Translations under genes and position numbers: made by a program
The notes under the pieces: model-generated
Databases searched by the model: none
What the model saw: only the letters and a program-made list of their open reading frames with translations
Told to the model about the DNA's origin: nothing
Source: Treponema sp.
Lineage (GTDB): Bacteria > Spirochaetota > Spirochaetia > Treponematales > Breznakiellaceae
NCBI GenBank assembly: GCA_009786455.1
Contig: WQTD01000015.1
Location: forward strand, 1 to 59,454
Reading direction: 5' to 3'
DNA: 59,454 nt
Shown: positions 14,771 to 23,150 of the stretch, piece after piece
Position numbering within the stretch: position 1 is the first letter of the stretch
How the letters are laid out: each line of letters starts with the position of its first letter

Positions 14771-15628
14771 CTAATAACCCATGTTGCTTTTTAAGTCTTC
14801 TTTAAACAACCGCATTTGTTTTGCGATCCTTATATGTTTGGCGACTTTATCGTTCAGTTCCTTTGGCTTAAAAGGTTTTACAATAAAGTCAGATGCGCCG
14901 ATGGAAATGGCTTTGTTTACATGATCCATTGTTCCTTCGGTTGTTATAATAATAATCGGAGTATCCTCATACTCCGGCATTACCCGTATCATCTGAATAA
15001 GATCAAAACCGTTTAATACGGGCATTAAGTAATCAAGAAGGATCAAATCAGGGCTTTTTGTCCGTAAAAAATCCAGCGCGTCCTGGGATTTAGAGAGTAT
15101 ATACACTTTATACCGGTCATGCAGGGCATATTGCATTGCACGTAACATGCTGGTTACATCGTCAACAATGAGAACAACAGGCTTGTTGCTGACAGTCTCG
15201 CCTGCTGAAAATTCATTTTGCTCCGGAGAGCTCAGGTTATTCCCGACAATCTCCATTAACTTTGAAGCGGTATAAGGTTTGATAATATAATCAGCCGCTC
15301 CAAGGCTTAAACCTTTGACCACGCTTTCCCTGTCGCTTTTCCCCGTCAGGAAGATTACCGGAACGGCGGAATAACGCTCATCAGCTTTCAGGCTTTTAAT
15401 GGCTTCATATCCGTCAACATCAGGCATGTTGACATCCATGAGAATTAAATCAGGAGTGATTTTTTCAAGTATTTCGAACATTTTTTCGGCGGAATCCATA
15501 GTATAAACATCATAACGATCCTGCAGCCTGTTTTTCACCGATGTAAGACTGTACTGAATGTCATCAACGTAAATAATTTTTTTTCGGGATTCAGAAATTT
15601 GAGACACTGATTTAGCCGGCTCTTTCAT
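14771..15628 (-). CDS. Response regulator with two receiver domains
   Basis: A 285-residue protein made only of two CheY-like receivers, with no output domain. Receiver 1 has acidic pair 'YVDD', phospho-acceptor context 'LILMDVNMPDVDG' and conserved Lys in 'IIKPY'. Receiver 2 has 'LIVDDV', 'LILLDYLMPVLNG' and 'IVKPFKPKE'. Both therefore look phosphorylatable. The start ATG at 15628 has 'ggag' upstream and overlaps the end of the hybrid kinase gene by 17 bp; an upstream in-frame ATG at 15652 lacks a ribosome binding site. Coupled translation with the kinase makes it the likely partner, acting as a phosphate sink, relay or protein-protein signal. Confidence 0.9.
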   Translation of the reverse strand: MKEPAKSVSQISESRKKIIYVDDIQYSLTSVKNRLQDRYDVYTMDSAEKMFEILEKITPDLILMDVNMPDVDGYEAIKSLKADERYSAVPVIFLTGKSDRESVVKGLSLGAADYIIKPYTASKLMEIVGNNLSSPEQNEFSAGETVSNKPVVLIVDDVTSMLRAMQYALHDRYKVYILSKSQDALDFLRTKSPDLILLDYLMPVLNGFDLIQMIRVMPEYEDTPIIIITTEGTMDHVNKAISIGASDFIVKPFKPKELNDKVAKHIRIAKQMRLFKEDLKSNMGY

Positions 15629-18600
15629 TATTATAACTCTCCAGTTTTTCAATTATTTCCTTGAAATTTGATCTGTCAATATTGTGCCGCAGCCAGGCAG
15701 TAAGACCGTCATCCGCCTCATATTTATACTTTTCTATTTCCGCCATTGCCTTGTCAGCTTTTTCAATATCATAATTCATGCAGGCGGCAAGAAACTGTCT
15801 CAGTGTTTCCATGTCAGGCAAGTCTTTGAGCGGTTTCGGATTTTCCGTGTCAAGGTCGTCAAACATTTTTTCCAAATCAAAAATCAATTTCCAGGCGTTT
15901 GCAAGGAATGTTTTGTGGCGCTCATGTATGTATTCAAAATCACCTGTTTTTGCCGCCTCCTCAAGTTCTTTCGCATTTTTACCAATTTGCTCTGCGCCGA
16001 CATCAATGCTTGTTCCCTTGATCCCATGAACTTTTATTTCATAATTTCTGATTGTTTCTTCGTCAGGTTCTTTTTCGATTTCTTCAAGAAGGGATCGAAC
16101 ACTGGATGTATACGAACGCAGAATTTGAAGATATTGTTTTTCATCATCTTCGTATCGTTCTAATCCCTTTACTATATCCAGTCCGTCAATTTTTTTATCC
16201 AGAAGCCATGCGCTGGAAGCGCAAGTTTCGTGTAACATTTCAGCATACTCATTTGCCTCTGCTTCGGCTTCCTCAAATTCACTGCGAATCATATGTTCCG
16301 TAATCCTGTCCAGAACCACCCTTGTCTCTCTCGAACAACTACGTATTTCATTAATTGAATCTAAAGCACCCTTTCTGTCGTAGTCTGCGCAAAGTTCCCT
16401 GATTGCCGCCATCCTGCTGCGTAAGTCATCAATGTCGTCATCATCAGCATAAGCTCTATCTGCAGCAGCTTCCCGTTTTGATTCTAGCTGATCCGATAGT
16501 TGGCGTAATTTATCCAGAAATTCCGGGGTTAATTCCTTTAACAACTCTATGTTTTCCTCCCGTCCTCCCATTTCCAGCATGTATGCCGCCTTGGAAAGTT
16601 CTTTTTCTCCTATGTTCGAAAGGGAACTTTTAATGCCGTGAACTGTTGTTATAAATTTTTTTAACGTATCCTCGTTTTCAAATCCGTTTTTTTGCGCCGC
16701 GTCAGCCTGATACACAAGTCCTTCCAGCAGCGCCAAAGCTTTATATGCGTCCCGGATAAAAGATTCCATCAAAATCGAATCTATTCCGGTATTATTTTCA
16801 GTCACCGCACATCCGGCAGGTGCAGAGCTTTTATTTTGCCGCCTTGCCGCCTCTATCACTTCATTCGGCTGCTTGTCTCTCACATATTTGTTAAGAATCG
16901 TATTCATCTGCCGTATGTCTATCGGTTTTGATATAAAATCATTAAAACCGTTTTTAAGAAACATATCCGCCTGCCCGGACACCGCGTTTGCTGTAAGAGC
17001 GATAATCGGAGCGCTGTAACCCAGATCGCGTATATACCTTGCCGCTTCAAGTCCGTCCATTTCAGGCATCATGTGATCCATGAAAATTATGTCGTAGATT
17101 TTACCTTCTTTTATTTTATTGATGGCCATCTGCCCGCTCATGGCAGTGTCTATCTGCAGCCTGTATAATTTTATAAGACCGACAGCGACATATATATTTG
17201 TTTCAACATCGTCAACAACCAAGATGCTTCCATAGGGCATTGGGTCGCGTACTATTTTATTTCTCACTTTTTTCGCCATAAAATTAATGCGGAACTGACG
17301 CAGGCTGTCAGCGACATCGCTTCCGATAGTTTCCCTGTTTTTAATTTCCTGCGGCAGTTTGACAATAAAAAGCGTGCCTTTATCCGGCTCGCTTTCTACG
17401 CTGATATTTCCGTCCATGAGGTCTACAAGACGCTTTGTGATCGTAAGACCAAGTCCTGTGCCTTCGACTGTAAGATTTTTTCTTATATTAAAGCGCGTAT
17501 ATTCCACAAACAATTTATCCAATTGCTCTTTTGTCATTCCGCTGCCGGTATCCCGGACGCTTAAAATTAAAGTAATGCCTTCTTTGTCATGTCCAATCCA
17601 TTTAACCTGATTATTCATAGAATGATCAGGCAAATGTGAAATTAACGGAATTGGTTCTGTAGAAACAGATAACGTAACCTTTCCCTCGTCAGTATATTTA
17701 ACCGCATTGGACAGGAGATTATTCAAAATTTGTTTAATACGAAGCGAATCGCCGATAAGATTCGCCGGTATGTTTTCATCAACCTTAAGCTCAAACTCAA
17801 TCGGCTTTGATTCAACGCGCATTATATTCAATTGAACGGAGTCATTTATCATGCTTGCGACTTTATATGAAGAGGACATTATATCAAGCTTGCCCGCTTC
17901 AATTTTTGAAAAATCCAGTATGTCGTTAATAATGCCCAAAAGTAAATCGCATGAACTGTAAATTTTATCAAGTCCTTCCTGAATATCCGCGGGTAATTGA
18001 TCATTTGATATCAATAATTCAGTAACACCGAGAATTGCGTTCATTGGCGTGCGTATCTCGTGGCTCATATTCGCAAGGAAACTGGACTTTGCGGAATTCG
18101 CAAGCTGCGCAGTCTCGTGCGCTTTGTACCTCTCAGAGCCTGAAACAGCCAGCGCCATTAAATCCGCCAGAGATGAAGCGAAGTTCTGCTCTTCCATTGT
18201 CCACTCGCGTTTTTCAGGATAATCATCGCATATCCACTGTTCGACACAGACAACTCCCGCCAGTTGACCGTCGACGCGGATTGGCGCGTCAAGGGCTGCG
18301 CATAAATAATCATATCCGCTGAATGAATCGGTAATCAACTTGCACTCATCAATGTTATTCATAATTATAAGCCGCTCTGATTTCAACAGATTCAAATACT
18401 CCTTATGATTTGTCAGCTCAAATGTTTCAGAAAAATCCCAGTTATTGGCAAACATATCATAACTGGAAATGCAGTTTAAAATATCTTCATTATTTAAATA
18501 GCTCCATATGCTAACGCGGTGAGCGCTCAGCGCGGCGCTTCCTTCCTGCGCGACAATATCAGAGGCGTCTTTTAAAACTCCTGCGGAAATGGTCGGCGAT

Positions 18601-20780
18601 TTTGTAATTCTCGCGAGCGCTTTATTTAATTTTTTGGAATATTCATACGAGAACGCAGTTTCCTGTTCAATTTTTTTAAGCTTTGAAATATTATGTGATA
18701 TGCCGATAAGTCCTACTACCGCGCCGTTTAGCATAAGAGGCACTTTTGTTGTTTCATAAAGGGGGTTTGTTCCGTCGGGGTTTGGAATGTTTTCTTCAAC
18801 TGTAGTTATGCAATTTTCATATATTGCTTTTGCGTCATGTTTCATATGATAGTTCGCGATTTCAGCCGGTATATTAAGAACATCAGAATCGGTTTTTTCG
18901 ATCATGTCTTCCATGCACTTGTCGAAATTTTTCAAAAACGCTTTGTTGCAGCTCTTGTATTTTAAATTCAAATCCTTTGTAAAAATAAGATCGGGAATGG
19001 AATCAAATAAAGTAGTAAGGGTCGCGGTTTGAAGCGCGAGTTCATCAGTGCGTTTTTGAACAAGTATTTCCAGATTCTTGCCCGTCATTCGGCTTCTGAC
19101 AAAAAAAACTACTATTAAAATCAGCACAATCATAAAAAGCAATGATAAACCCATAAATAACGGACGCTGCGCTTCCATAACCTTGTTCCGGTAATCGTAG
19201 GTTCTTCTCATCCAGTGATCCGAGATGTTTTTGGTGTCTATGTTGACAAGCGCTTTGTCAATAATGGAGCAAAGAATTTCCTCGTTATTGTTAAGACCGA
19301 ACTGAATATCCATCGCGTAATCGAACACAATATTGGTTTTATAATCGGGAAGCTCCAAATAATGAGTCAGATACAAAAGTCTTCTTTGATTTGCCATAAC
19401 CATGTCAACTTCTCCGCGCATCATCGCGGCAAACGCTTCTTCAACACTCTCGTACTCAAAAGTCTTTGTGTGACCGGGGAACCATTTATTAAAAACCTCG
19501 GCATATGCGGTATTTCTGGCTAATCCCACCCTGACGTATAAAACTTCATTGAGTTTTATGTCTGGAAAATCAATATGGGAAATTAGCGCCTGAAAGTCGG
19601 TTATATACGCCGACCCCGGCCATAAAAACTGATCCGCGCGATCATGCGGCTGGGTCAGTTCAGTTACCAAAGTTACTTCTCCCCTCTTCAGCATTTCAGA
19701 TATTTGCGGCCATTGAGTATGTTCATCATTAACGCGGTTAAAATTTAACCCCGTTAGATGCGATATTTCATCAAGTATATCCAGAGAAACTCCGCGCCAT
19801 TTTTTTTCCCGCGCGTCATAAAAAGAGCCCGGGTAATTGCCGGGGTCTACGCCAATCGGCACTATGGGGTTATTGCGGATATATTCGCGTTCTTCCTGCG
19901 TTAGCTGCATTTTCACCTTGTGCTGCATGTATTCGGTGTTCGACCGGTTATACAGCGTTGTCAGATAATGCAGGCTGCCTTCGGTTTGCAGTATCTTTTC
20001 CACTACCGAGATGATTGGTTCAAGAGCGGGATTTTGAGTCGACAAAGAAACCGGGCGGTAGATCAACGGGTAAAAATAAAATGCGCTCACGTCGCTGTAT
20101 TCAATAAAATTTATCTCTGAGGTGCCGGTATAATAGAAGGCGTCGATTTTACCGCTTTTGAGCGCGTCGTAAACGAGGCTGACATCATCCAGTATAACAG
20201 ACTCAAAGGTACCAGGATCAAGCTCTGAAGAAACGGTCAGTATTGTGGCAGTGCCTTGAATGAAGCCGCAACGGATTGGGCGATCCTTGTTTATTTCATC
20301 AAGAGGCTTGACGCCTGAAAGGCGGAAATATTTTAACGGACGCATGGCGATAGCGCTGGTCATGCGGTAAATTTCAAGCCGCTCTTCCCTTGCCGTTAAT
20401 TCGCCTGTGAAAGAAATTTCTCCCGTTTCAAGACCGGATAGCAAATCATTCCATTCATACAGCGCAGGCTTGAAGGTGATGCCGAAAATCTCTGTCAGCC
20501 ATTCACAGAACAGGGCGGTAAATCCCCTTATATCACCGCTTTTATCTCTAAACGCTTCTGTACTAAGAGGCATCCCGTAAATAAGCGTATCGTTACTTTC
20601 ACGGATTTTAACGATGACGTTTTTTTCTTCCTGTGTTACACCGGGAATTTCGTTATACGAAGAAAATAAATATCGGTTGGAAATTAGACCCGAATCCGGA
20701 GCGGAGCATCCAAAAAAAAGCACAGACAACATGATTATAGGAAAGAAATAGCTTTTTGAATCGATGAACTCTTTTTTCAT
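15612..20780 (-). CDS. BvgS-type hybrid histidine kinase with two solute-binding domains
   Basis: A 1722-residue sensor. A signal peptide with lipobox-like 'LFFGC' (Cys25) leads to two periplasmic SBP_bac_3 (amino-acid-binding-like) domains (about 45-270 and 300-530), one membrane helix (about 540-562), a PAS domain ('LFDSIPDLIFTKDLNLKYKS'), a GAF-like region, HisKA ('NMSHEIRTPMN', His907), HATPase ('LLSNAVKYTDEG', 'GTGLGLTITKRLV'), a receiver (Asp1235 in 'IIFMDHMMPEMDG') and two Hpt domains (His1381 in 'TTVHGIKSS', His1585 in 'KVHGIKGTS'). The phosphorelay His-Asp-His is thus in one chain, with an extra Hpt. Start: ATG at 20780 has 'agggtgg' eight bases upstream; a GTG four codons earlier is less likely. 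The two-receiver protein overlaps its 3' end. The ligand is unknown, perhaps an amino acid or similar small polar solute. Confidence 0.95.
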   Translation of the reverse strand: MKKEFIDSKSYFFPIIMLSVLFFGCSAPDSGLISNRYLFSSYNEIPGVTQEEKNVIVKIRESNDTLIYGMPLSTEAFRDKSGDIRGFTALFCEWLTEIFGITFKPALYEWNDLLSGLETGEISFTGELTAREERLEIYRMTSAIAMRPLKYFRLSGVKPLDEINKDRPIRCGFIQGTATILTVSSELDPGTFESVILDDVSLVYDALKSGKIDAFYYTGTSEINFIEYSDVSAFYFYPLIYRPVSLSTQNPALEPIISVVEKILQTEGSLHYLTTLYNRSNTEYMQHKVKMQLTQEEREYIRNNPIVPIGVDPGNYPGSFYDAREKKWRGVSLDILDEISHLTGLNFNRVNDEHTQWPQISEMLKRGEVTLVTELTQPHDRADQFLWPGSAYITDFQALISHIDFPDIKLNEVLYVRVGLARNTAYAEVFNKWFPGHTKTFEYESVEEAFAAMMRGEVDMVMANQRRLLYLTHYLELPDYKTNIVFDYAMDIQFGLNNNEEILCSIIDKALVNIDTKNISDHWMRRTYDYRNKVMEAQRPLFMGLSLLFMIVLILIVVFFVRSRMTGKNLEILVQKRTDELALQTATLTTLFDSIPDLIFTKDLNLKYKSCNKAFLKNFDKCMEDMIEKTDSDVLNIPAEIANYHMKHDAKAIYENCITTVEENIPNPDGTNPLYETTKVPLMLNGAVVGLIGISHNISKLKKIEQETAFSYEYSKKLNKALARITKSPTISAGVLKDASDIVAQEGSAALSAHRVSIWSYLNNEDILNCISSYDMFANNWDFSETFELTNHKEYLNLLKSERLIIMNNIDECKLITDSFSGYDYLCAALDAPIRVDGQLAGVVCVEQWICDDYPEKREWTMEEQNFASSLADLMALAVSGSERYKAHETAQLANSAKSSFLANMSHEIRTPMNAILGVTELLISNDQLPADIQEGLDKIYSSCDLLLGIINDILDFSKIEAGKLDIMSSSYKVASMINDSVQLNIMRVESKPIEFELKVDENIPANLIGDSLRIKQILNNLLSNAVKYTDEGKVTLSVSTEPIPLISHLPDHSMNNQVKWIGHDKEGITLILSVRDTGSGMTKEQLDKLFVEYTRFNIRKNLTVEGTGLGLTITKRLVDLMDGNISVESEPDKGTLFIVKLPQEIKNRETIGSDVADSLRQFRINFMAKKVRNKIVRDPMPYGSILVVDDVETNIYVAVGLIKLYRLQIDTAMSGQMAINKIKEGKIYDIIFMDHMMPEMDGLEAARYIRDLGYSAPIIALTANAVSGQADMFLKNGFNDFISKPIDIRQMNTILNKYVRDKQPNEVIEAARRQNKSSAPAGCAVTENNTGIDSILMESFIRDAYKALALLEGLVYQADAAQKNGFENEDTLKKFITTVHGIKSSLSNIGEKELSKAAYMLEMGGREENIELLKELTPEFLDKLRQLSDQLESKREAAADRAYADDDDIDDLRSRMAAIRELCADYDRKGALDSINEIRSCSRETRVVLDRITEHMIRSEFEEAEAEANEYAEMLHETCASSAWLLDKKIDGLDIVKGLERYEDDEKQYLQILRSYTSSVRSLLEEIEKEPDEETIRNYEIKVHGIKGTSIDVGAEQIGKNAKELEEAAKTGDFEYIHERHKTFLANAWKLIFDLEKMFDDLDTENPKPLKDLPDMETLRQFLAACMNYDIEKADKAMAEIEKYKYEADDGLTAWLRHNIDRSNFKEIIEKLESYNNERAG

Positions 20781-20947
20781 CGCGAATACCACCCTGAATT
20801 GTGTATTACATTATCGCAAATACTACCCAATTATTAAATTTTTTTAGTTTTTTTTCAAGAAAAATGTTATAATGTCAAGGAATTTCCAATTAGATTGAAA
20901 AATCCTCTATAAAATATTTAAATTATATAAAACTTGTATAATTTTAT

Positions 20948-21179: not shown

Positions 21180-21213
21180 AGGCTTTTCCAAAACTGAAGT
21201 TTTGAAAAAGCCT
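21180..21213. repeat. Hairpin repeat copy A (terminator-like)
   Basis: Sixteen-base arms (21180-21195 and 21198-21213) with one mismatch and a two-base loop. Core 'cttttccaaaact'. It is the first of at least six related hairpins in 21.2-24.7 kb. It lies 39 bases beyond the 3' end of tRNA-Pro in the direction of transcription and may terminate that transcript. Confidence 0.75.
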
Positions 21214-21496: not shown

Positions 21497-21534
21497 AGGC
21501 TGTTCCAAAACTTCAATTTTTGGAACAGCTGCCT
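21497..21534. repeat. Hairpin repeat copy B
   Basis: Perfect 11-base arms 'ctgttccaaaa' (21500-21510) and 'ttttggaacag' (21518-21528), flanked by outer aggc/gcct with a two-base bulge. This is the cleanest copy of the family. It lies upstream of the tRNA-Asp gene, pointing to either strand. Confidence 0.8.
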
Positions 21535-21594: not shown

Positions 21595-21717
21595 GGTTTC
21601 AGGTAAATTAAAAATTTTTTACAAATTTTTCAAAATGATCAAAAAAGTTCATTAATAAATAACATATTTTGATATATTATCGTTAAGGAATTATTTTAGG
21701 CAAAGGAGGTAAAAAAA

Positions 21718-21801
21718 ATGACAATTTGGAATGTGAAAGTTTACCGTATCCCTTCAACTCATGATATGAGGAGAAAAAAGCCTAACTTAATATTTCCATG
21801 A
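21718..21801 (+). CDS. 27-residue peptide gene with consensus ribosome binding site
   Basis: A tiny ORF (ATG 21718, TGA 21799-21801) preceded by 'aaaggaggt' at ideal distance, the strongest Shine-Dalgarno in this part of the window. The peptide is cationic: it has an aromatic start with 'WNVKVYR', a central 'STHDMRRKK' and a C-terminal 'LIFP'. There is no hydrophobic signal segment, no Cys pair and no leader-type codon run, so it is neither an obvious lipopeptide nor a classical attenuation leader. A strong terminator follows 18 bases after the stop, and a stand-alone AraC-type DNA-binding protein comes next. An AT-rich tract with a TATATTAT -10-like element lies about 45 bases upstream. I do not recognise the family. 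Possible roles are a signalling or regulatory peptide, a small-protein partner of the regulator, or a translated leader controlling read-through. Confidence 0.6.
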   Translation: MTIWNVKVYRIPSTHDMRRKKPNLIFP

Positions 21802-21819
21802 TTTAAATCAGGGTTATTC

Positions 21820-21857
21820 AGCGGTTTAAGGCTTTACGCTTTAAACCGCTTTTTTTT
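21820..21857 (+). terminator. Strong intrinsic terminator after the peptide gene
   Basis: Thirteen-base arms (21820-21832 and 21838-21850, one G-U pair) with a five-base loop and eight Ts. The next gene's Shine-Dalgarno 'ggag' starts directly after the T-tract, so expression of the regulator from the peptide promoter requires read-through. Confidence 0.9.
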
Positions 21858-21867
21858 GGAGTAAAAA

Positions 21868-22218
21868 ATGTCACGAACATATAATTTATTGGAAAATGTA
21901 CTGGTTGAGATAGAGAACGGCATCAGCGAAGGAATTGACGCAAATACCATTGCAAAAAAGAATTCGCTGTCTGAAACCCATTTGCGAAGGCTGTTCAGAT
22001 TTACATACAGTCAAACTATCACAAAATATATCAGATCAAAAAAACTGAAAGCAAGTCTTGATGATTTATTAAAAACTGATCTGAATGTACTGGATATAGC
22101 GCTTAAGTATGGTTTTGAATATGAGCAGTCGTACATCAGGGCATTTAAACGCGAATATGGACTCACGCCCGGCTACCTGCGCAAATCAGGCAGAGCGGAC
22201 TCTCTTTTATGCTGCTGA
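21868..22218 (+). CDS. Stand-alone AraC-type HTH protein
   Basis: A 116-residue protein consisting almost only of the double helix-turn-helix DNA-binding domain of AraC/XylS regulators. HTH 1 is around 'IAKKNSLSETHLRRLFRF' (residues 31-48). HTH 2 is around 'VLDIALKYGFEYEQSYIRAF' (75-94), followed by the family C-terminal 'YGLTPGYLRKSG'. There is no effector-binding domain: the roughly 150-170 residues usually found before the HTH region are absent, and the N-terminus has its own start with 'ggag'. It either acts constitutively like MarA/SoxS-type proteins or takes its signal from a separate partner. The peptide gene immediately upstream is the obvious candidate partner (inference). The gene ends at a hairpin repeat shared with the convergent esterase. 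Confidence 0.85.
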   Translation: MSRTYNLLENVLVEIENGISEGIDANTIAKKNSLSETHLRRLFRFTYSQTITKYIRSKKLKASLDDLLKTDLNVLDIALKYGFEYEQSYIRAFKREYGLTPGYLRKSGRADSLLCC

Positions 22219-22235: not shown

Positions 22236-22275
22236 TTGAGGCTGTTTCAAAATTCAGTTTTTGGAACAACCTCAA
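22236..22275. repeat. Hairpin repeat copy C (shared terminator)
   Basis: Arms starting 'ttgaggctgtttcaaaa' and ending with the near complement of it, around a short loop. It lies exactly between the convergent AraC-type gene (stop 22218) and the esterase gene (stop 22277), so it can serve as a bidirectional terminator. Confidence 0.8.
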
Positions 22276-22276
22276 T

Positions 22277-23107
22277 TCATTTAAGTTTTTCCCTGAAAAA
22301 ATCCGCTATTAAATCCCAGAACGGTTTTTGGAAAAATTGCGCGCCTGCGTGTCCTTCGCCTTTTATTCCATAAAATTGAACATCAATGTTACGGGCAGCC
22401 AGCGCGTCATATAACATTTCGCTCTGTTTAAAAGGCACTGTCATATCGTCAGTTCCGTGCAGGAGAAGGAATGGCGGCGCGTCCGCTGATACATATGTGA
22501 CAGGATTAATTGAATCGCAATAACGCTTGTCATCTAAATCTCCTGCAAAGAATGGAATCTGCAGCGAGTTTTCCTTCGCCATCCCGGCAATATCACAGGG
22601 AGGGTACCAGCAGCATGCTGCCTGCACGCCGCTTGAGTAGTCCAGATAATTGCCCGCTTCAAATTCACTTTTACAGGCGAGAGCAGTCATTGCCACAAGG
22701 TATCCTCCCGCTGACTCTCCCATTACGCCGAATTTATTTGTGTTTATTGAATAGCGTTTCGCGTGAGCGCGCAGGTAACGGATTGCCGCTTTGATGTCGA
22801 GTAATGCGCCGGGGAAAGGAGCTTCGTGTCCAAGGCGGTAATCTGCGCTGGCAACTACGAAGCCGCGGCGGGCAAGATCGGACAGATATGGAATATGCGC
22901 GCCTTTGTTCATTTGCATCCAGTAGCCGCCGCAGATCCAGACAATACAGGGGAACTGTTTATCTTCAGCCTGAGGATATATAATATCCATTCGCAGGTCG
23001 CGTGTTACATGCCCGTACCAGGCATCCTCCTGCGCATATGTTACTTCTTCGTCCAAAAAATAAACCGGCTCTTTTACTTTAAATGAAATTATTTTCTTTT
23101 TAGCCAT
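22277..23107 (-). CDS. Alpha/beta-hydrolase esterase (BD-FAE/Aes-like)
   Basis: A 276-residue cytoplasmic serine hydrolase. The nucleophile elbow is 'GESAGG' (Ser132), the acid is in 'HGTDDMTVP' near residue 218 and the His in 'GEGHAGAQ' near 252. The oxyanion-hole segment reads 'CGGYW' in place of the usual HGGGW. This architecture is common among acetyl-xylan, feruloyl and short-chain acyl esterases that deacylate sugars or aryl esters; the substrate is unknown. Start: ATG at 23107 has 'aagg' about nine bases upstream; an in-frame ATG at 23116 would sit directly on that site. Neighbours are a hexokinase on the same strand and a lone regulator on the other, suggesting carbohydrate use. No signal peptide is present. 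Confidence 0.88.
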   Translation of the reverse strand: MAKKKIISFKVKEPVYFLDEEVTYAQEDAWYGHVTRDLRMDIIYPQAEDKQFPCIVWICGGYWMQMNKGAHIPYLSDLARRGFVVASADYRLGHEAPFPGALLDIKAAIRYLRAHAKRYSINTNKFGVMGESAGGYLVAMTALACKSEFEAGNYLDYSSGVQAACCWYPPCDIAGMAKENSLQIPFFAGDLDDKRYCDSINPVTYVSADAPPFLLLHGTDDMTVPFKQSEMLYDALAARNIDVQFYGIKGEGHAGAQFFQKPFWDLIADFFREKLK

Positions 23108-23150
23108 AAAATCCATCCTTAATTCATATTACAGCCAGGAACTATAAAAA

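What the first reader, a model, noticed from the sequence alone, without database searches (positions are those of the whole stretch)
21718..22218. Micro-peptide gene, terminator and lone AraC-type HTH gene in one unit
Seen: a 27-codon ORF with a consensus 'aaaggaggt' ribosome binding site at 21718-21801, a 13-bp-stem intrinsic terminator with T8 at 21820-21857, and a 116-residue protein consisting only of an AraC HTH domain at 21868, whose own Shine-Dalgarno touches the T-tract. Such lone HTH proteins lack a sensor domain. Inference: the cationic peptide (with 'WNVKVYR' and 'THDMRRKK') may be a signal, a product regulated by the HTH protein, or a translated leader whose reading controls read-through into the regulator. 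I recognise no family for the peptide, so this is the strongest candidate for an undescribed small system.
Basis: partly seen in the sequence, partly recalled or inferred. Interest (0 to 1): 0.85.

Follow-up and report, generated by a model that had tools for sequence, protein, structure and literature searches.

The report
Leader-peptide switch for a resistance-type regulator
In termite-gut spirochaetes a tiny gene and an RNA hairpin appear to act as a translation sensor that switches on a MarA-like regulator, whose likely binding sites lie in front of pump, acetyltransferase and other defence-type genes.

Summary
In detail: a 27-codon ORF with a strong ribosome-binding site, a 13-bp terminator with T8, and a 116-aa AraC HTH-only gene. 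The unit is not unique. RNA models found the same leader at 8 places in 6 of 39 genus genomes and at one place in another genus: five before single-domain AraC genes (one group in the tree), three before GNAT acetyltransferases, one before an aminotransferase. In these leaders the uORF end can pair with the terminator's 5' arm; in simulation a ribosome on the last 8-11 codons abolishes this antiterminator. Best reading: a uORF attenuator. Full translation terminates transcription; impeded translation lets RNA polymerase reach the regulator. The protein is nearest to RamA, Rob, SoxS and MarA. A 20-bp operator-like site in its promoter recurs in the genus, is about five times denser in genomes with the regulator family, often sits at fixed spacing before -10 boxes, and precedes ABC exporters, GNATs, beta-lactamase-fold hydrolases and an ANT-like gene, but also xylanases. 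The anatomy is that of actinobacterial WhiB7 with a MarA-like protein. The peptide as signal or product is not supported. Signal, DNA binding and translation are unproven, and the alternative pairing is weakest in the window itself.

The parts
21634..21653 (+). operator-like 20-mer AATGATCAAAAAAGTTCATT (near-palindrome), proposed binding site of the HTH family
   Evidence: enriched over the mirrored control, denser in genomes with the regulator family, preferred spacing to -10 boxes
21675..21680 (+). probable -10 box TATTAT, 21 nt after the operator (no consensus -35)
21702..21709 (+). Shine-Dalgarno of the uORF (aaaggagg)
21718..21801 (+). uORF / leader peptide, 27 codons, TGA stop
   Evidence: stop-to-terminator distance 18-21 nt in the 8 leaders measured
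21777..21787 (+). segment 2: 5' strand of the predicted antiterminator, inside the uORF
   Evidence: duplex -9.9 kcal/mol, 7+4 pairs with a 2-nt bulge
21799..21810 (+). small hairpin containing the uORF stop codon (TGAT..ATCA)
21823..21835 (+). segment 3: terminator 5' arm and loop edge that can pair with segment 2 instead
21820..21857 (+). intrinsic terminator, 13-bp stem and T8
   Evidence: 99% of pair cells kept in 8 leaders, 4 pairs changed on both sides
21858..21861 (+). Shine-Dalgarno (ggag) of the HTH gene, touching the T-tract
21868..22218 (+). single-domain AraC/XylS (MarA/SoxS/RamA-like) regulator, 116 aa

Best explanation
A transcription attenuator driven by a translated uORF controls a MarA-like, sensor-less AraC activator. 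If ribosomes translate the 27-codon uORF to its stop, they cover its last codons (segment 2), the terminator forms and the regulator stays off. If ribosomes stall early in the uORF or fail to start (translation-inhibiting antibiotics or similar stress), segment 2 pairs with the terminator's 5' arm (antiterminator), RNA polymerase reads through and the HTH protein is made. The protein then binds the 20-bp operator next to the -35 region of target promoters (exporters, GNAT acetyltransferases, hydrolases and others) and, in this genome, its own promoter (positive feedback). Shown by computation: the parts, their recurrence, the alternative pairings, the operator's distribution and geometry. Inferred: that the uORF is translated, that the HTH protein binds this operator and activates, and that the signal is translation inhibition.
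For: Same leader at 8 places in 6 of 39 genus genomes and at 1 place in another genus, among 195 family genomes. uORF stop 18-21 nt before the terminator in 8 of 8 measured; the two other frames of the same stretch both hold stops in 7 of 8. Fold of the transcript before the terminator's 3' arm is the antiterminator in 8 of 8. Masking by a ribosome (-15 to +15 nt of the P-site codon, my assumption) abolishes it over the last 8-11 codons in 8 of 9 leaders. Antiterminator cells paired 88.5% against 25-56% when slid. uORF peptides before the GNAT gene in two genera share MQTVxFSLxQ. The five leader-bearing HTH proteins group together (82/6; four of them 97/93). Nearest solved chains are RamA, Rob, SoxS, MarA. 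Operator sites (16-mer, up to 1 mismatch): 73 (mirrored control 8) in 17 HTH+ genomes, 17 (control 6) in 22 HTH- genomes. -10-like hexamers peak 19 nt after the site: 13 of 55 sites; no offset reached 13 in 500 shuffles. Downstream genes: beta-lactamase fold 7 of 37 against at most 2 of 110 control ORFs, GNAT 4 of 37 against 2 of 110.
Against: The window's own antiterminator is the weakest (-9.9 kcal/mol; 104 of 1000 and 101 of 2000 shuffles as good); L148's duplex is met by 202 of 2000. The shuffle control for antiterminator covariation is not passed (158/500). In simulation L155 also loses the antiterminator at about 12 middle codons, L019 loses part of it at several, and without any ribosome it is absent in L148 and L155. 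Three complete single-domain HTHs lack the leader (L031, L038, L044). In L017, L018 and L019 the uORF promoter has a TTGAC-type -35 and the operator lies farther upstream (in L017 and L019 on the other strand), so direct self-activation is likely only in some species. The operator (up to 4 mismatches) is upstream of 12 of 28 HTH-family genes. One perfect operator is in G060, which has no close HTH. The motif was read off HTH promoters, so the association is partly circular. Downstream genes also include xylanases and others. No expression or binding data.
Confidence: 0.65

Rival explanations
1. Amino-acid-specific attenuator (trp/leu/ilv type): starvation for one amino acid stalls the ribosome at regulatory codons and lets the downstream gene be expressed.
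For: Leucine-rich uORF ends (RLELLLL*, RLELILL*) and an aminotransferase behind one leader. An unrelated weak hit, L166 in another genus, does look like a Phe/Tyr attenuator, so the type exists in the order.
Against: The Leu codons lie where a stalled ribosome would block, not favour, the antiterminator; the window uORF has one Leu there; by inspection no amino acid stands out in the upstream parts of the nine uORFs; a regulator or acetyltransferase, not biosynthesis, is downstream in 8 of 9.
Confidence: 0.12
2. The leader senses one compound through a nascent-chain arrest (TnaC- or Erm-like, recalled types), perhaps at the C-terminus ending ...L-x-P-stop.
For: Similar C-terminal residues and Pro before the stop in the window, L148, L155 and L156; MQTVxFSLxQ shared by two GNAT leaders.
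Against: Five of nine uORFs end in Leu; the conserved codons coincide with segment 2, so RNA pairing can explain them; a stall at the stop would keep the terminator on.
Confidence: 0.12
3. The peptide is a signal, toxin or effector regulated by, or regulating, the HTH protein in trans.
For: It is cationic and has a strong SD.
Against: No conservation of the N-terminal sequence among the AraC leaders, no convincing relative in 58 other genomes, and the same leader stands before unrelated genes.
Confidence: 0.04
4. The operator belongs to another transcription factor, and the HTH genes are only among its targets.
For: A near-palindrome is unusual for a monomeric MarA-type site (recalled); G060 has a perfect site without a close HTH.
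Against: Site density follows presence of the HTH family across 39 genomes; the site abuts the -35 region.
Confidence: 0.2

Closest known systems
WhiB7/WblC uORF attenuator of Actinobacteria (PMC11550727 and PMC13236596: passages read)
   Same: Transcription factor preceded by a uORF and a Rho-independent terminator; uORF translation favours the terminator, impeded translation the antiterminator; the regulator drives a resistance programme.
   Different: Regulator is AraC/MarA-like, not a WhiB protein; spirochaete host; the same leader class also stands before GNAT and aminotransferase genes; induction not tested.
MarA/SoxS/RamA and Rob, enteric AraC/XylS activators (PMC8279559: start of abstract seen in the listing)
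   Same: Single HTH domain; nearest solved relatives; two-domain paralogs with a GyrI-like/Cass2 domain correspond to Rob; one operator apparently shared by paralogs.
   Different: Below the NCBIfam equivalog cut-offs; proposed control by an RNA leader instead of MarR/SoxR/RamR (recalled); near-palindromic operator.
toiL uORF of E. coli topAI (PMC12121999: passages read)
   Same: A uORF in the 5' leader that senses several ribosome-targeting antibiotics.
   Different: Different downstream genes; no sequence comparison made.
trp/ilv-type amino-acid attenuators (general knowledge; ilvB1 passage in PMC13236596)
   Same: Mutually exclusive terminator and antiterminator, choice made by ribosome position.
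   Different: No run of regulatory codons; the conserved codons lie where stalling would terminate.

Membership tests
uORF-dependent transcription attenuator (general kind) | short ORF with SD ending close before an intrinsic terminator | tested here: met
   8 of 8 leaders measured, stop to terminator 18-21 nt; start and SD of L155 unclear
uORF-dependent transcription attenuator (general kind) | alternative antiterminator overlapping the uORF | tested here: met
   pre-decision fold 8 of 8, masking 8 of 9 clean; weak in window, covariation control not passed
uORF-dependent transcription attenuator (general kind) | uORF is translated and conditional read-through occurs | not testable with these tools
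   only a hint: similar uORF peptides in two genera, 4 synonymous and 3 non-synonymous codon changes in 11 codons
WhiB7/WblC | WhiB-type Fe-S protein | tested here: not met
   only HTH_18/HTH_AraC found
AraC/XylS family | HTH_18 / HTH_AraC domain above cut-off | tested here: met
   64.8 bits against 33.6 and 42 against 26.6
MarA/SoxS/RamA equivalogs | NCBIfam equivalog score | tested here: not met
   RamA 75 bits against 180, SoxS 66.6 against 174, MarA 43.9 against 250
MarA/SoxS/Rob-like group (works like) | sensor-less activator with paralogs sharing one operator abutting the -35 region | tested here: inconclusive
   operator geometry and association, no binding data
amino-acid attenuator | run of codons for one amino acid placed so that stalling frees the antiterminator | tested here: not met
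   and inspection of the peptides
Rfam RNA family | match above gathering score | tested here: not met
   only two tRNAs in the whole window

The most novel reading that the evidence does not exclude
A paralogous AraC HTH module in termite-gut spirochaetes has exchanged its sensor several times (GyrI/Cass2 domain, GH10 or GH11 domain, or nothing), and the sensor-less branch took up a general translation-status RNA switch, creating a MarA-WhiB7 hybrid that commands an intrinsic defence regulon; the same switch is a modular cassette also placed before individual acetyltransferase genes.
Probability: 0.45. Interest if true: 0.85.

Novelty: new variant of a known kind. Interest (0 to 1): 0.72.

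Why it matters
It would be a WhiB7-like translation-stress sensor for intrinsic defence outside Actinobacteria, built on a MarA-like regulator, with a predicted operator and regulon in a spirochaete group. It makes testable how a sensor-less AraC regulator gets its input, and how an attenuator cassette comes to stand before different genes.

Tried and rejected
Peptide search by sequence: in 58 other genomes only hits at E 0.32-0.99, in 6 genomes; degenerate DNA pattern in the own genome: only itself. Rfam: two tRNAs only.

Weak RNA-model hits: beside the nine leaders, the four RNA searches gave 25 further places of 21-38 bits. All 25 were looked at (6, 2, 17). By eye most are ordinary terminators, coding DNA or other hairpins. 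Two are notable: L166 (G185) has a Phe/Tyr-rich 18-codon ORF before its terminator and looks like an ordinary aromatic-amino-acid attenuator; L149 (G018) has an SD-like stretch and 17-codon ORF before a terminator, with other spacing, and stays undecided. In one search I had first printed L149 at a wrong place; one search corrects that.

An apparent compensatory change at alignment columns 10/56 (G-C to A-U in the window) is weak evidence, because the best window duplex uses a shifted register. Control ORFs: 110 drawn from 233; some of them lie beside operators on the other strand or in the same operon, which weakens the contrast. The rule-based set of 37 missed the own-genome ABC exporter (L086) and the cut-off G019 hydrolase (L091). 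Rows left out of the HTH tree: L030, L032, L040, L041 by the script's rules, and L083, whose ORF runs off its contig. Perfect operators were counted on the cut list.

Papers: 10 searches listed none that I recognised as an AraC/MarA-type regulator under a uORF attenuator, or such an attenuator in spirochaetes; I saw listings, and passages of five papers; the four papers were not opened. The library holds open-licence papers only, so this is no proof of absence.

Full report
WHAT IS THERE. The unit lies between two tRNA genes on the other strand (Pro, Asp) and a convergent BD-FAE-type hydrolase gene (22277-23116), so it is probably a single-gene transcription unit with a 5' leader. The HTH protein has only the AraC domain. 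Its nearest solved relatives are RamA, Rob, SoxS and MarA; NCBIfam ranks RamA, SoxS and Rob first, all far below the equivalog cut-offs.

RELATIVES. In 59 genomes (own, 35 more of the genus, 23 of other families of the order) the HTH protein has matches at E<=1e-15 in 17, all of the one genus; 31 places are listed. G019 is Treponema sp. isolate Emb289P3bin69: one search returned a contig of the same length (5710) with the same leader and gene. That this isolate comes from a termite gut is recalled from its name. Most relatives are longer: HTH plus a GyrI-like/Cass2 domain (L002, in the window's own genome), or HTH plus a GH11 (L029) or GH10 (L039) domain. Eight complete single-domain forms were seen: window (L001), L017, L018, L019, L026, L031, L038, L044.

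THE LEADER. Five of these eight (window, L017, L018, L019, L026) share the layout SD, short ORF, TGA, terminator. I saw no such leader in the 300 nt before the other three or before the long forms. A covariance model of the five leaders (R1), searched in 39 genus genomes, found these five at 100-109 bits and three more at 65-68 bits: L148 (G016) and L155 (G026) before a GNAT acetyltransferase, L156 (G020) before a class I/II aminotransferase. Eight weaker places (25-32 bits) brought the tally to 12 of 39 genomes at E<=0.1. A second model built on the antiterminator (R2) returned the same eight leaders in 6 of 39 genomes at 78-96 bits, the rest at most 27 bits. In 195 family genomes it gave one more at 36 bits in another genus (G335, L189), again before the GNAT gene. 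The order-wide R1 search of 241 genomes added no leader that I could confirm. Both large searches used stricter filters. Of 195 family genomes, 7 have that GNAT at E<=1e-20; in the up to 330 nt read, three have the leader (G016, G026, G335) and four do not.

The uORF peptides end KPNLIFP* (window), RLELLLL*, RLESRLL*, KLGLLFL*, RLELILL*, GPGLLSP*, KLGLRLP*, RLELLSP* and TSGLLL*. Their upstream parts differ, except that the GNAT leaders of two genera share MQTVxFSLxQ, with 4 synonymous and 3 non-synonymous codon changes over 11 codons, a modest sign of coding. L155's start codon is uncertain. Over the stretch from start to stop both other frames hold stop codons in 7 of 8 leaders.

HOW IT COULD SWITCH. 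The last codons of the uORF are complementary to the terminator's 5' arm. Duplex energies run from -9.9 (window) to -22.5 kcal/mol; as-good shuffles per 2000 are 101, 0, 10, 8, 18, 202, 68, 32 for window, L017, L018, L019, L026, L148, L155, L156. Folded up to the terminator loop, all eight adopt this antiterminator, enclosing the stop-codon region; folded in full, all eight show the terminator. On the alignment 88.5% of antiterminator cells pair, against 25-56% when slid, but the column-shuffle control is not passed (158/500); the terminator passes it (4 pairs changed on both sides, 0/500). With a ribosome footprint of -15 to +15 nt moved codon by codon, the antiterminator is abolished over the last 8-11 codons in eight of nine leaders and mostly intact before; L019 shows dips, and L155 also loses it over about 12 middle codons. 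Without any ribosome it persists in 7 of 9 (not L148, L155). The design predicts: complete translation terminates, stalled or absent translation reads through. This is the logic described for whiB7/wblC (PMC11550727, passages).

THE OPERATOR. Promoters of many family members contain ATCAAAAAWGTTCATT, extended to AATGATCAAAAAWGTTCATT; in the window it is exact at 21634-21653, 21 nt before TATTAT. In 39 genus genomes the 16-mer with up to one mismatch occurs 90 times against 14 for the mirrored control; 73 (control 8) fall in the 17 genomes with the HTH family (1.65 per Mb) and 17 (control 6) in the 22 without (0.33 per Mb; Mann-Whitney p 6e-6). This is partly circular, since the motif was read off HTH promoters and sites before HTH genes are counted. 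Of 11 perfect 20-mers in the cut list, 10 are in HTH+ genomes and one in G060, where only distant AraC proteins were found. The site is present (up to 4 mismatches within 400 nt) for 12 of 28 HTH-family genes (two of the 28 have short or badly placed upstream DNA). Over 55 distinct sites, -10-like hexamers peak 19 nt after the motif, with 13 sites; no offset reached 13 in 500 shuffles. This puts the site against the -35 region, a usual activator position. In the window genome the two other sites with one mismatch precede an ABC exporter (G000:C69) and a 56-aa CxxC...CxxC protein that also stands behind the site in G006 and G031; at up to three mismatches the own genome has 7 sites against 3 in the control.

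TARGETS. Of 37 genes chosen by rule, 7 are beta-lactamase-fold hydrolases (six of them look like one orthologous group), 4 GNAT, 4 HTH-family, 3 with GH11, 2 ABC ATPases, 2 with a GyrI-like domain, one EamA exporter, one methyltransferase and others; categories overlap. Among 110 other ORFs of the same loci GNAT is 2, ABC ATPase 3, and beta-lactamase at most 2 (not among the 25 families shown). One target (L101) is nearest to aminoglycoside nucleotidyltransferases ANT(9)/AadA, far below their cut-offs. 'Resistance-type' thus describes folds, not shown function, and xylanases are in the set, perhaps served by the paralogs fused to GH domains.

EVOLUTION. In the HTH tree the five leader-bearing proteins fall together (82/6, weak; four of them 97/93); the label needs 1 change against 4.8 in shuffles. 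The leader was probably gained once with this single-domain branch; elsewhere it stands before other genes.

VERDICT. It works like WhiB7's leader joined to a MarA-like regulator. Missing is any expression, binding or translation datum, and the window copy has the weakest alternative pairing of the set.

Noticed in passing
L029, L037, L041 (HTH-GH11) and L030, L039 (HTH-GH10): AraC HTH domains fused in one frame to xylanase-type glycoside hydrolase domains (Pfam run for L029 and L039 only; the others by sequence likeness), perhaps sugar sensors.
   Followed up: partly
L085 (G000:C8, near 22649), L114, L116: A 56-aa protein ending in CxxC...CPxC (zinc-ribbon-like) directly behind the operator in three genomes; two of the three run against Pfam, no family above cut-off.
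   Followed up: partly
L089:1741-2376 and L109:2587-3168: Similar 211- and 193-aa proteins, each directly behind the operator in G019 and G021; the one scanned alone (L109) has no Pfam or NCBIfam match.
   Followed up: partly
L107:2343-2501 (-), G021, divergent from the leader unit: A 52-codon ORF resembling the two ends of the ABC exporter that stands in the same divergent place in G020 (L102).
   Followed up: no
L166, about 1500-1650 (G185): SD, Phe/Tyr-rich 18-codon ORF (MKHFAYSFYFYFYFSSVQ) and terminator before a gene starting MTDLEESRKLIN: looks like an aromatic-amino-acid attenuator in another genus of the order.
   Followed up: no
window 21180-21213, 21497-21534, 22239-22273: Recurring hairpin repeats (ggctgttccaaaact...ttttggaacagc type) around the genes; similar ones in L085 and L150.
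   Followed up: no
window 15612-20792 (-): 1726-aa hybrid sensor kinase with SBP_bac_3, PAS, GAF, HisKA, receiver and Hpt domains next to the tRNA pair.
   Followed up: no
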